64,000 nucleotides of DNA from Thermococcus siculi (GTDB lineage Archaea > Methanobacteriota_B > Thermococci > Thermococcales > Thermococcaceae): positions 1,736,001 through 1,800,000 of the forward strand of contig NZ_CP015103.1 in assembly GCF_002214505.1 (NCBI RefSeq). Direction: 5' to 3'. The first letter of the stretch is position 1. The number at the start of each line of letters is the position of its first letter. Shown piece by piece: positions 49,252 through 54,260 of this stretch. The notes beneath the pieces were generated by a model. The model did no database searches, had not been told where the DNA came from, and saw only the letters and a program-made list of their open reading frames with translations. The translations under genes were made by a program, and so were the position numbers.

Positions 49252-52035
49252 ATGCACCCCCTCCTCAAGAAGATCATCAGGGAGCGCTTCGGGAAGCTCA
49301 ACAGGCTCCAGCAGGACGCTTTTCGCGAGGTTAGTGCCGGAAAGAGCGTCCTGATCATAGCGCCGACCGGTTCCGGAAAGACAGAGGCCGCAGTTCTTCC
49401 CGTCTTCAGCGAAATCCTTGAGGAGGGACTGAAGCCTATTTCCGCCCTCTACATCGCACCGCTCAAGGCCCTCAACAGGGATCTCCTCGAGAGGCTCGAG
49501 TGGTGGGGGGAGAAGCTCGGGATAAGCGTCGAGGTGAGGCACGGGGACACCTCCTCCTACCGAAAGGCAAAGCAGGTTAAGAACCCGCCCCAAATGCTCA
49601 TTATAACCCCCGAAACGCTCGGCGTAATTTTAACGGTAAAATCCCTCCGAAAGCACCTTGAAAACGTGAAGTTCGTTATAGTGGACGAGATAGCCGAGCT
49701 GGTGGACAACAAGCGCGGTGCCCAGCTTCTCCTCAACCTTGAGCGCCTGGAAGAGATAGCAGACTTCAAAAGGATAGGAATGACCGCGACGGTCGGCAAC
49801 GAGGAAGAAGTGAGGGAGTGGCTGAAGGCTGACGTTATAGTTAAGCCAAACTGGAAGAAGAGCTACCGCTTCCACGTTCTGTATCCAACCCCCACCGGGG
49901 AGGACGAAGAACTCGGCCGGGAGCTGAGCCTCTCGCCCGAGATAGCGGCGCGTCTGAGGCTCCTCTGGGACATAGTCGAGAGGCACGGGAAGGCGCTGAT
50001 ATTCACCAACACGAGGCAGTTCGCCGAAATCCTCGCCCACAGGCTGAAGGCGTGGGGGAAGCCCGTCGAAGTCCACCACGGCTCGCTCTCCAAGGAGGCG
50101 CGCATTAAAGCGGAGAAAGGCCTGAAGGAAGGCAGGATAAGGGCGCTGATATGCACCTCGTCTATGGAGCTTGGGATAGACATCGGGGACGTCGATGTCG
50201 TAATCCAGTACATGAGTCCGAGGCAGGTTAACCGTCTGGTTCAGCGCGCCGGGAGGGCGAAGCACAGGATCGGCGAGATCAGCGAGGCCTACATGATAAC
50301 TTCCAACGTCGAGGACTACCTGCAGAGCCTAATCATAGCCAAGCACGCCCTTGAGGGGCGGTTTGAAGCCGTCGAGCCGATGGGCGGGCTGGATGTGCTC
50401 GCTTCATTCGTCGTCGGCCTGCTCATCGAGTACAGGAGATTACCGCGGGAGAAGCCCTACGAGATAGCGAGGAGGGCCTACGTTTACAGGGACTTGAGCT
50501 GGAAGGACTACCTTGACGTTCTTCGCGTTCTCGAGGATGCCCGCCTGATCGGCTACGACGAGGAGACCGGCCTGCTCTACCTGCGCAGGGGAGCATTCCA
50601 GTACTACTACGAGAACCTCTCGACGATTCCGGACGAGGTCTCTTGGAGGGTTTTCGATGCAAAGAGCGGCCACATAATTGGAAGGCTGGACGAGAGGTTC
50701 GTCATGGACTTGGAGGAAGGAATGGACTTCATTATGAACGGACGGAGCTGGATAGTGCTGGAGATAGACGACGAGTCGAAGCTCCTCAAGGTTCGCGAGA
50801 GCAGGAGCTTGGAGAGCGCGATTCCGAGCTGGGAGGGCGAGATGATTCCGGTTCCGTTCAGCGTCGCCTTCGCCGTCGGGAGGCTGAAAAGGGGGCTTGC
50901 TTTTGACTTCGAGAAGGCCCTTTCCCTGCTCGACGGTGTTGAGTTCAGTAAGGACGAACTGAAGAGGGCCTTTGAAGAGATAAAAGACGAGCCTTTCTCG
51001 ACTGACCGGGACATTATTGTGGAGAGCACGCCGAAAGCGCTCATTATCCACGCGGACTTCGGCAACAGGGCGAACGAAGCACTCGGAAGAATCGTCCACT
51101 CCCTGTTAATTCTCCGTTATGGCAGAGTCTTTTCCGTCAGAGCGCAGGCCCACGCAATAGTATTCAAGACGCCATTCCAGCTGAACCCGGAGGAAGTGAA
51201 GGGCTACCTATACCAGGAACCCGAAACCTTGGAGTTCATAGTCGCCCGCTCCCTCAGGGATTCCCACGCCTACCGCTGGAGGATGCTGAACGTCGCGAAG
51301 CGCTTCGGAGCTTTGAGGAGGGACGCGAAGATAAGGCGTGTTGAAAGGCTCTTCGAGGGGACTGTTATAGAAAGAGAAACGCTGGACGAGCTCTACCACG
51401 ACAAAGTTGACGTGAAGAAGGCCGAGCTTGTTCTTGAGATGCTGAAGAGGGGCTCGCTGAGGGTGAAGACGGCCCTTAGAAGGGAACCCTCGACGCTGGC
51501 GAGGCTCAACATGGCTGTGGGAGGGGAGTTCCTGCTCACGGGAGCGCTTGAGAGGGACGAAGTCCTCGAACTGTTCAGGAACAGGCTCCTTGACCATGAG
51601 GTCGTTCTCGTCTGTACTAACTGCGGCTGGCACTCGAAGACGAAGGTTGCACGCCTAGGGAGCATCAAAGAGAGGGAGTGTCCGCGCTGTGGCTCCAGGA
51701 TGCTGGCCGTTGCCCATCCGATAGATGCGGAGGAGTTCCTGCCCGTTCTTGATAAGGTCAGGCATGGGAGGCCGCTGGAGAGAAAGGAAGAGCGGACTTA
51801 CAGGAAACTCTTAAAGGCGGCCGACCTTGTCGATGCCTACGGCTTCGATGCCGTTCTGGCCCTGGCGAGCTACGGAACCGGACCCGATACTGCCGCAAGG
51901 ATTCTGAGCCAGTACAGAGGAGACGCCCTGCTGGTCGCCCTGATGGAGCGCGAGAGGGAGTTCATAAGGACGAGGCGGTTCTGGGTGGATAAAAAGAATG
52001 AGGAAAACAACAAAGAAAAGGGTCAGGAGTCCTGA
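49252..52035 (+). CDS. lhr: Lhr-type DEAD/DEAH-box helicase
   Basis: A 927-aa ATP-dependent superfamily 2 helicase (archaeal Lhr), used in DNA repair/recombination or RNA metabolism. Walker A APTGSGKTEAA near 37-47, motif II VDEIAELV near 143-150 (DEIA where most Lhr proteins have DEIH), SAT-like GMTATVG, motif VI QRAGRAKHR near 331-339; then winged-helix and Lhr-specific C-terminal domains (AYRWRMLNVAKRFGAL), and a zinc ribbon CTNCGW ... CPRCG near 785-810. The TATA box is about 25 nt before the ATG, so the mRNA may be leaderless. The 3' end faces the ATPase gene across a repeat copy. Confidence 0.93.
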   Translation: MHPLLKKIIRERFGKLNRLQQDAFREVSAGKSVLIIAPTGSGKTEAAVLPVFSEILEEGLKPISALYIAPLKALNRDLLERLEWWGEKLGISVEVRHGDTSSYRKAKQVKNPPQMLIITPETLGVILTVKSLRKHLENVKFVIVDEIAELVDNKRGAQLLLNLERLEEIADFKRIGMTATVGNEEEVREWLKADVIVKPNWKKSYRFHVLYPTPTGEDEELGRELSLSPEIAARLRLLWDIVERHGKALIFTNTRQFAEILAHRLKAWGKPVEVHHGSLSKEARIKAEKGLKEGRIRALICTSSMELGIDIGDVDVVIQYMSPRQVNRLVQRAGRAKHRIGEISEAYMITSNVEDYLQSLIIAKHALEGRFEAVEPMGGLDVLASFVVGLLIEYRRLPREKPYEIARRAYVYRDLSWKDYLDVLRVLEDARLIGYDEETGLLYLRRGAFQYYYENLSTIPDEVSWRVFDAKSGHIIGRLDERFVMDLEEGMDFIMNGRSWIVLEIDDESKLLKVRESRSLESAIPSWEGEMIPVPFSVAFAVGRLKRGLAFDFEKALSLLDGVEFSKDELKRAFEEIKDEPFSTDRDIIVESTPKALIIHADFGNRANEALGRIVHSLLILRYGRVFSVRAQAHAIVFKTPFQLNPEEVKGYLYQEPETLEFIVARSLRDSHAYRWRMLNVAKRFGALRRDAKIRRVERLFEGTVIERETLDELYHDKVDVKKAELVLEMLKRGSLRVKTALRREPSTLARLNMAVGGEFLLTGALERDEVLELFRNRLLDHEVVLVCTNCGWHSKTKVARLGSIKERECPRCGSRMLAVAHPIDAEEFLPVLDKVRHGRPLERKEERTYRKLLKAADLVDAYGFDAVLALASYGTGPDTAARILSQYRGDALLVALMEREREFIRTRRFWVDKKNEENNKEKGQES

Positions 52036-52047
52036 GCCCTGAAGGGG

Positions 52048-52065
52048 CACCAGTTACTGGTGGGG
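52048..52065. repeat. 18-bp repeat copy at the 3' end of the ATPase gene
   Basis: CACCAGTTACTGGTGGGG, identical to 18 bp of the hairpin at 53133-53157 on the other side of the ATPase gene. The core CACCAG-TTA-CTGGTG is an inverted repeat with 6-bp arms. It sits in the 30-bp gap between the convergent Lhr and ATPase stops. Confidence 0.75.
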
Positions 52066-53130
52066 TTACTTAAACGCCAGCTCAATAAGGGGGTCGGGTA
52101 TAAAGTACCCATCTATCGTCTTTTCAAGGTAGCCGTAGCGGACGAGGTTGTTCAAAACGTTGGAGAAGTTTTTGTCGTCCAGTCTTTTGCCTTCGAGGAG
52201 TTCGACGGCCTCTTTTATCTCCTTCCACCTGTGTCTGCCGTTGGCAACCGCTCTCATGGCGAGTCCGTAGCGGGGGGAGAGCTCGTTAAGCTTTGAGAAC
52301 TCACTGAGGATTAACCTTCTGGCATCGTCTTTCAGTTTCCGAAGGGATTCGCCGTGGGAAAGGCCGAGGTAGCGGTTGTAGCCGTAGAGGGTCAGCCAGC
52401 CGACTATTCCATCGAGCTCGTCAACGGCCTCCTCAATTTCGTGCTCATCTATGTCGAGTTCAATCTCCTCAAAGCCCTTTCTGAGGAAATCAAGGCTCTG
52501 GCGTCTTTCAAACCTTCTGAGTTTCACCTCAACGTGGGCCCTGCCAAAGAGCGCCGATTCCGGATCGTGAAGGCGGAGGAAGTCCTCCAGAAGGCCGACT
52601 TCCGAGCCGGTCAGGATGAATCCGACGTTCTGGAGTTCGTCAACCGCCCACGCTATCAGCTCGGCATAGCGGGAGCGGGAAAAGCGAAGGTACTGGGCCT
52701 CGTCTATGGCTATGACGAACCGTTCTCCCATTGAGTCTATCCTTTCGAGGACCTTGAAGAGGTTTACGCTGCTATCCACACGGATTTCCAGACCAACACC
52801 CGCCAGGCGAACACCTTTGATGCCCTTTAAAGCATCCTTAACCCTCTCGCGGGGCGAAGTTTTGATGTAGCCTTCAAGAATCAACTTTGCCAATGCGCTT
52901 CCGGGGACACTTCCAAAGGCGGAATACACCTTCCTGGCGTCTATCTTGACGCTTTTAACCGGAACCTCACCGAGGGAGACGTTGAGGAGAGAGCTTTTTC
53001 CAAGGCGCCTTATGCCGAGCAGGACGATAAGAGGAACGCCTTTTTTGAGAGAGCCCTCCAGAATTGAAAGCTCTTCCTCGCGGTCGTAGAGTTCGTCTCT
53101 CCTTGTTTTGGGTTTTGGATTAAAGAGCAT
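52066..53130 (-). CDS. Archaeal-type AAA+ ATPase (PF01637 family)
   Basis: A 354-aa STAND-like ATPase of the archaeal ATPase family, common in multicopy in Thermococcales and without an established role. Walker A GIRRLGKSS near 39-47, Walker B FVIAIDEAQY near 138-147, sensor GFILTGSEVGLL near 170-181 and a C-terminal winged helix (VLNNLVRYGYLEKTIDGYFIPDPLIEL). Its ATG follows a perfect hairpin whose 3' arm is the ribosome site (GGTGGGGGG). Copies of the same 18-bp repeat lie at both ends, suggesting that the gene moves or moved as a cassette. Confidence 0.9.
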   Translation of the reverse strand: MLFNPKPKTRRDELYDREEELSILEGSLKKGVPLIVLLGIRRLGKSSLLNVSLGEVPVKSVKIDARKVYSAFGSVPGSALAKLILEGYIKTSPRERVKDALKGIKGVRLAGVGLEIRVDSSVNLFKVLERIDSMGERFVIAIDEAQYLRFSRSRYAELIAWAVDELQNVGFILTGSEVGLLEDFLRLHDPESALFGRAHVEVKLRRFERRQSLDFLRKGFEEIELDIDEHEIEEAVDELDGIVGWLTLYGYNRYLGLSHGESLRKLKDDARRLILSEFSKLNELSPRYGLAMRAVANGRHRWKEIKEAVELLEGKRLDDKNFSNVLNNLVRYGYLEKTIDGYFIPDPLIELAFK

Positions 53131-53132
53131 TA

Positions 53133-53157
53133 CCCCCCACCAGTTACTGGTGGGGGG
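53133..53157 (-). promoter_or_regulatory. Perfect hairpin masking the ATPase ribosome site
   Basis: Two 11-bp arms (CCCCCCACCAG and its complement CTGGTGGGGGG) around a 3-nt loop, ending two bases before the ATG of the ATPase gene. On the mRNA the 3' arm is the only ribosome site, so the hairpin would block translation unless opened; on DNA it is an inverted repeat downstream of the TTATTAAG TATA box (53163-53171). Confidence 0.75.
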
Positions 53158-53179
53158 TCAGTCTTAATAAGGGTTGCCT

Positions 53180-54232
53180 TCACCCACCACCATAAATCTC
53201 GTTGAGCACCTTGAGGAACTCGCTCGCGGTGACAACGTCCCTAACGTCGATGTGCTCGTTCTTGGTGTGCGAGATGTCGAGGTTACCTGGACCGAAGACT
53301 ATCGTCCTCGTCCCGTTGTACATGAAGTTTATGGCGTCGGTCCAGCTCCGCATTCCGCCGAACTCGTCTATGTCGGTTTTCTCCATAGCCTTCTTCGCCA
53401 GCTGGACTATTTCTTCGTCCGGCTCAAGCTCGTAGCCGTCCCATATCTCCGTATATTCGTACTTCAGCGTGTATTCGTCGAATATCGGGTCGAGGAGGTC
53501 GAGTATGTCCTCAACTTCCTGGTCGGGCAGAAGTCTCGCCTCGAGGCGGCCTTTGCAGAGGGCTGGAATGAGGTAGACGGGGTTCTCGCAGATTAGCTCC
53601 TGGATGCCTATGTGGGGGTCGAAGTACTTGCCCTTCTGCTTGAAGGGTTCGAGCTTCTTCATCTCCTCCAGCATCTTATAGGTCTCCTCGATGGCGTTGA
53701 CACCGCTCTCGGGGCACGCTCCGTGGGCCTCCTTTCCGTCGACCTCGAAATAGGCCTCGATGTTGCCGGCATGGGATATGTGGACTTCGAGGTCGGTCGG
53801 TTCAAGCACAACGGCCATCTTGGGCTTGTAGCGCTCCATGAAGAGGGCGGATCCCCTTCCCCCGTGCTCCTCGTCGCTGACGAAGACGACACCGACGTTG
53901 AGGTCCTTTCCTTCCTTCTTCAGGTTTTCAAGCATGAGGAGAATCGCAGCTGCACCTCCCTTTATGTCGCTCGCTCCGGTTCCATAGACGATGTTGCCCC
54001 TCACGAAGGGTTCCGCCCTCACGGGTATCGTATCAACGTGGACTTCGTAGAAGAGGTCGGCATCTGGATTCACGACGAGGTCTATTATCTCGCCGTCGCT
54101 CTCGATGTGGACGTCGTAATCGAGTCTGTGGAGGAACTCCATGATGTGGAGCATCACCCTATCCTCTCTCCCCGAGGGCGAGGGTATTCTCAAAAGCTGA
54201 AGGAGTATCTCCTTCGCGCGTTCGGTCTTCAT
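53180..54232 (-). CDS. M20-family metallopeptidase/deacylase
   Basis: A 350-aa di-zinc peptidase of the M20 family (ArgE/DapE/LysK group); it probably removes an acyl or peptide group from an amino acid. Zinc and catalytic residues: EVHVDT near 61-66, GTGASDIKGG near 83-92, SDEEHGG near 119-125, VLEPTDLE near 141-148 and the terminal SHTKNEH. LysW-lysine hydrolase is possible, but no lysine-synthesis gene is nearby. ATG 54232 follows AGGTGAACCAA. It lies 49 bp upstream of the ATPase gene on the same strand. Confidence 0.88.
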   Translation of the reverse strand: MKTERAKEILLQLLRIPSPSGREDRVMLHIMEFLHRLDYDVHIESDGEIIDLVVNPDADLFYEVHVDTIPVRAEPFVRGNIVYGTGASDIKGGAAAILLMLENLKKEGKDLNVGVVFVSDEEHGGRGSALFMERYKPKMAVVLEPTDLEVHISHAGNIEAYFEVDGKEAHGACPESGVNAIEETYKMLEEMKKLEPFKQKGKYFDPHIGIQELICENPVYLIPALCKGRLEARLLPDQEVEDILDLLDPIFDEYTLKYEYTEIWDGYELEPDEEIVQLAKKAMEKTDIDEFGGMRSWTDAINFMYNGTRTIVFGPGNLDISHTKNEHIDVRDVVTASEFLKVLNEIYGGG

Positions 54233-54260
54233 TTGGTTCACCTAATTAGCCTTCGCGGTT

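What the first reader, a model, noticed from the sequence alone, without database searches (positions are those of the whole stretch)
52048..53157. ATPase gene bracketed by an 18-bp repeat that also hides its ribosome site
CACCAGTTACTGGTGGGG occurs at both ends of one PF01637 ATPase gene. At the 5' end it grows to a perfect 11-bp hairpin that contains the only ribosome site, two bases before the ATG. This implies translational (or DNA-level) self-control, and the flanking copies suggest a mobile cassette or a protein that recognises its own gene.
Basis: partly seen in the sequence, partly recalled or inferred. Interest (0 to 1): 0.6.

Follow-up and report, generated by a model that had tools for sequence, protein, structure and literature searches.

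The report
Archaeal ATPase gene with private DNA switch
Many ATPase genes of heat-loving archaea carry their own unique mirror-image DNA sequence at the start codon (probably where each protein binds to regulate itself), in about a third of them copied again at the stop codon, and this sequence stays behind at the same chromosomal spot in species where the gene itself is missing.

Summary
The repeat is real and non-random: CACCAGTTACTGGTG occurs exactly twice in the 2.03-Mb genome, at the two ends of one PF01637 ATPase gene. The RNA-hairpin/ribosome-site reading is unlikely. The palindrome lies between TATA box and ATG, and the predicted start site falls inside it, so only one arm should be transcribed. 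It looks like a DNA operator. Of 96 relatives in the genus, 61 have a strong palindrome within 46 bp of the start codon (1.3 expected); each ortholog group has its own sequence and usually its own locus. A copy at the stop codon exists in 30 of 96 (0 in 768 control windows), including all eight scored members of this gene's group. Orthologs in another genus keep the palindrome at a different locus, so it belongs to the gene. At this locus 23 of 45 genomes have the palindrome but not this ATPase; four other loci show gene-less operators too. The vacant palindrome is far better conserved than adjacent DNA. Some vacant sites are exact recombinants of the two copies; others are not. Best reading: an autoregulated, rapidly gained and lost ATPase whose operator marks its site. 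DNA binding and excision are inferred, not shown.

The parts
52066..53130 (-). ATPase ORF, 354 aa: PF01637 ATPase_2 (residues 15-246) plus MCM_C-type winged helix (285-337)
   Evidence: solved relatives 2QEN and 2FNA
53132..53158 (.). 5' palindrome (operator-like), 13-bp arms around one base, between TATA box and ATG; its right arm contains the ribosome site
   Evidence: sequence; family-wide palindrome statistics
52048..52062 (.). 3' copy of the palindrome core, between the ATPase stop codon and the convergent helicase gene (shared 18-mer runs to 52065)
   Evidence: 3' copies in other genomes
53164..53171 (-). TATA-box-like CTTATTAA, 33 nt upstream of the ATG; similar boxes are kept at many gene-less sites
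   Evidence: sequence; spacing rule from PMC4247193
53131..53141 (-). predicted transcribed leader (about 10 nt); GGTGGG at 53136-53141 fits the RBS consensus GGDGRD
   Evidence: inference; fold comparison
53180..54241 (-). upstream flanking gene, M20 family deacetylase/peptidase (NF006403)
49252..52035 (+). downstream convergent flanking gene, DEAD/H helicase

Best explanation
The 5' palindrome is the operator of an autoregulated AAA+-type ATPase. It overlaps the expected transcription start, so the protein, through its C-terminal winged helix, would block or tune its own promoter. The palindrome evolves with the protein, giving one private operator per ortholog group. A second copy at the stop codon, present in 5 of 15 groups, makes the gene an operator-gene-operator unit. 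The gene turns over fast: it is missing in many species, where the promoter-operator stays behind, and some alleles move between species at the same site. Recombination between the two copies explains several vacant sites exactly. Shown here: the anatomy, private palindromes, 3' copies, vacant sites, hybrid junctions in three genomes, xenologous alleles. Inferred: DNA binding, repression, the recombination process. The cellular role is most likely a high-turnover accessory (defence-like) ATPase; this last step is the weakest.
For: Palindrome score >=8 within 46 bp of the start in 61/96 members vs 1.3 from shuffles and 1 in each control set; the sequence differs between groups, most of them at a fixed locus. 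The palindrome core occurs in 29 of 61 genomes and only at the M20 junction (loci). Same palindrome at orthologs of another genus at a different locus without the 3' copy. 3' copies 30/96 vs 0 in 768 control windows. Vacant sites with one palindrome (other groups). Hybrid junctions: G001, G032 and G021 match the 5'-left and 3'-right flanks of a filled relative at 0.92-1.0 and 0.83-0.92, crossed controls 0.24-0.38. Fourfold-site identity G000/G018: ATPase 0.878, flanking genes 0.526 and 0.553.
Against: No binding or transcription data. Two groups without any 3' copy also have vacant operators, and in group 1 the vacant form has a spacer that the filled form lacks, so repeat recombination is not the whole story. 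Allele exchange is only modestly above background recombination over all groups (16.5% vs 7.8% of pairs discordant). Palindromes score weakly in groups 6 and 8. PADLOC matches are marginal.
Confidence: 0.62

Rival explanations
1. RNA hairpin: the palindrome folds in the mRNA and hides the ribosome site, giving translational self-control.
For: As RNA the full palindrome folds at -27.2 kcal/mol, z -4.4, and the ribosome site is in its right arm.
Against: TATA-ATG distance is 33 nt; with the 23-bp rule the leader is about 10 nt and holds only the right arm, folding no better than shuffles (z +0.9). The 3' copy and the vacant copies have no start codon to control. In many groups the inverted repeats abut the TATA box.
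Confidence: 0.06
2. Site-specific mobile gene: the palindrome is an attachment/insertion site, the ATPase (with host factors) targets it, and insertion duplicates it.
For: Exact vacant sites with one copy; the gene edge coincides with the operator edge in five groups; xenologous alleles; vacant palindromes 88% identical while adjacent 33-bp blocks are 45% and 30% identical among species whose silent sites are mostly saturated.
Against: No nuclease, transposase or recombinase domain. No palindrome site anywhere else in any genome of the genus. The vacant site keeps the gene's TATA box, and the palindrome travels with the gene in another genus, so it reads as a relic rather than a naive target.
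Confidence: 0.2
3. Passive loss only: the direct repeats cause slippage deletion of a dispensable gene; nothing regulatory or mobile.
For: Hybrid junctions; 13 losses under Dollo on the M20+helicase tree; decayed copies G041 and G043.
Against: Does not explain private palindromes at start codons across groups and phyla, 3' copies in five groups, vacant sites without 3' copies or horizontal alleles.
Confidence: 0.12

Closest known systems
SSO1545 / PF01637 archaeal ATPases (PDB 2FNA, 2QEN)
   Same: Same family over the full length by sequence (E 1e-50 and 1e-64): P-loop ATPase plus C-terminal winged helix.
   Different: No private operator, 3' copy or vacant sites found described in the papers searched.
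Orc1/Cdc6 with ORB boxes next to its own gene
   Same: AAA+-type ATPase with winged helix and inverted repeats beside its own gene (general knowledge, not tested).
   Different: Here the repeat overlaps the gene's promoter and start codon and is private to one paralog; no origin evidence sought or seen.
REP/RAYT and IS200/IS605 elements
   Same: One gene bracketed by palindromes.
   Different: No transposase domain found; palindrome at one locus per genome; palindrome lies in the promoter.
Autoregulated C proteins of restriction systems and antitoxins
   Same: Accessory gene whose product binds a palindrome at its own promoter; high turnover (general knowledge).
   Different: Regulator and ATPase would be one protein; no partner gene in an operon at this locus.

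Membership tests
PF01637 ATPase_2 (SSO1545-like) | Pfam match above curated cut-off over the ATPase domain | tested here: met
   59.6 bits vs cut-off 33.2
PF01637 ATPase_2 (SSO1545-like) | C-terminal winged-helix domain | tested here: met
   PF21100 MCM_C 35.9 bits vs 27, residues 285-337; full-length match to 2QEN
Autoregulated transcription factor | palindrome overlapping own promoter between TATA box and start codon | tested here: met
Autoregulated transcription factor | protein binds that palindrome and changes transcription | not testable with these tools
   only comparative support
Insertion sequence / REP-RAYT | transposase or other recombinase gene in the unit | tested here: not met
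Insertion sequence / REP-RAYT | multiple dispersed copies in the genome | tested here: not met
Site-specific mobile cassette | empty sites with a single repeat in relatives | tested here: met
Site-specific mobile cassette | gene moves between species independently of its flanks | tested here: inconclusive
   clear for G000/G018, modest over all groups
Known anti-phage defence system | strong match to a defence family | tested here: inconclusive
   only E 7.6e-5 to a candidate PDC family

The most novel reading that the evidence does not exclude
The private palindromes are both operators and permanent docking sites of a family of one-gene mobile units: each ATPase recognises its own site, which stays conserved when vacant and is re-occupied by horizontally acquired alleles, the protein itself defining where the gene begins and ends.
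Probability: 0.2. Interest if true: 0.85.

Novelty: new variant of a known kind. Interest (0 to 1): 0.6.

Why it matters
PF01637 ATPases are abundant in archaeal genomes and mostly without known function. A set of paralogs, each with a predicted private DNA site, gives a direct handle: binding, regulation and exchange can be tested pair by pair in genetically tractable Thermococcus. Operators that remain conserved after the gene is gone raise a question that neither simple gene loss nor autoregulation answers.

Tried and rejected
Repeat next to other PF01637 genes of the same genome: not found (one search read only plus-strand ORFs and missed about half the loci, so it was replaced). Palindrome as a dispersed element: rejected. 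Palindrome as a pre-existing feature of the M20/helicase junction: disfavoured, because it accompanies the gene at another locus in another genus. Repeat recombination as the sole cause of vacant sites: rejected after groups 1 and 2 also showed vacant operators. Allele exchange as a strong general signal: weakened by the control. Literature searches gave nothing on this architecture; the SSO1545 structure paper is not held. No structure prediction was run, because full-length solved relatives exist.

Full report
Observation. The 18-mer is present at both ends of the ATPase gene and nowhere else in the window; the 15-bp core is unmatched elsewhere in the genome. At the 5' end it is the centre of a 27-bp palindrome (53132-53158). 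The gene is on the minus strand between an M20-family gene and a convergent helicase. The protein has an ATPase_2 domain and an MCM_C-like winged helix and is a full-length relative of the solved 2QEN and 2FNA.

Why an operator and not an RNA hairpin. A TATA-like CTTATTAA ends 33 nt before the ATG. T. kodakarensis starts transcription at a median 23 bp from the TATA box (PMC4247193). The start is thus expected near 53141, inside the palindrome. The leader would be about 10 nt; it folds no better than shuffles, although the whole palindrome would fold strongly.

The family. A protein search of 61 genomes of the genus listed more than 150 relatives. I read 104 loci. Sixty-one of 96 with usable flanks have a palindrome score of at least 8 within 46 bp of the start, against 1.3 expected from dinucleotide shuffles and one in each set of control windows. 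Examples are TAACTTACCCCGGGGTAAGTAACTTACGGTGGGGTAAGTTG, AAGTATCGGTACCGATACTTAGTATCGGGGGCGATACCTATG and CCCCAGTAGTTAACTACTGGGGTGGTAGTT. Clustering gives 15 groups, most at one fixed locus each, with their own palindromes (group 7 occupies several loci and has several palindromes). A copy of the operator at the stop codon exists in 30 of 96, in groups 0, 3, 4 (this gene), 6 and 10, against none in 768 control windows. In several members of groups 0 and 3 the copy supplies the stop codon itself.

Beyond the genus. In another genus 62-76% identical orthologs carry ACCAGTNACTGGT (in one or two cases with a mismatch) at the start codon but lie beside other genes and lack the 3' copy. More distant relatives in Metallosphaera, Sulfolobales, Thermotogae, Marsarchaeota and Micrarchaeota records have their own repeats at the start, and two Thermotogae and the Micrarchaeota also near the stop. 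The palindrome therefore goes with the gene.

Vacant sites. CACCAGTNACTGGTG occurs in 29 of 61 genomes, and only at the M20 junction. On a tree of 45 genomes, 12 have the gene (one decayed), 23 have the palindrome without this ATPase (four of them with a different, reversed ATPase beside it, some palindromes degenerate), 10 have neither. Ten changes are needed by parsimony, 13 losses under Dollo; some tree nodes are weakly supported. In G001, G032 and G021 the vacant junction is the left flank of the 5' copy joined to the right flank of the 3' copy of a filled relative. For the other five vacant sites tested the right flank was not matched. Groups 3 and 10 show the same pattern.

Horizontal exchange. 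Between the window genome and G018 fourfold sites are 88% identical in the ATPase but 53-55% in both flanking genes, and the similarity drops close to the ends of the unit. Between subgroups of the same ATPase the value is 36-49%, so this is not slow evolution. Over 103 comparisons in all groups, however, the ATPase is discordant by more than 0.2 in 16.5% of pairs against 7.8% between the two flanks, a modest excess.

What does not fit. Groups 1 and 2 never have a 3' copy, yet 8 of 30 and 3 of 26 operator sites are gene-less with the operator intact. In group 1 the filled gene abuts the convergent neighbour's stop codon, while most vacant sites have a 20-45 bp spacer there: two haplotypes rather than a simple deletion. 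These sites were found by pattern, so intact operators are favoured. At the window's locus, found through its neighbour gene, palindrome arms are 88% identical among 15 gene-less species while the 33 bp on either side are 45% and 30% identical (ungapped, and limited to sites with a recognisable core). Silent sites between most of the vacant species compared are near saturation. Either losses are many and recent, or the vacant operator is kept for a reason.

Conclusion. An autoregulated, high-turnover ATPase with a private operator is the best reading; its use as a docking or excision site remains open. What the ATPase does in the cell is unknown; a defence-like accessory role is a guess from its turnover and paralog number, with only marginal PADLOC support.

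Noticed in passing
L301, L307, L308, L315, L319, L328, L329, L330 (group 1) and L342, L343, L345 (group 2): Gene-less sites with intact operator, most with the promoter too, although these groups have no 3' copy; in group 1 a spacer replaces the gene.
   Followed up: partly
L054 (G029), L199 (G035), L205 (G055), L062 (G048): At the vacant palindrome of this locus a different (about 41% identical) ATPase sits in inverted orientation; in L054, L124 and L125 it has its own palindrome at its ATG. L062 is a remnant.
   Followed up: partly
L056 1634-3046 (G032); similar start seen beside the site in L058, L070, L071, L203: A different ATPase-like gene (VEFIDREREIE...) with its own TATA box lies directly beside the palindrome, so the M20/helicase junction collects such genes.
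   Followed up: no
L152 (G051), upstream of the ATPase: Three tandem copies of the operator unit 19 bp apart before one ATPase gene.
   Followed up: no
L151, L154, L133, L139, L145: A second operator copy about 95-105 bp upstream of the first.
   Followed up: no
L249, L250, L252, L256, L257: Relatives of this archaeal ATPase in Thermotogae MAGs, with repeats at the start codon; likely cross-domain transfer, binning error not excluded.
   Followed up: partly
whole genome G000: Twenty PF01637 matches in a 2.03-Mb genome, 16 above the curated cut-off.
   Followed up: no
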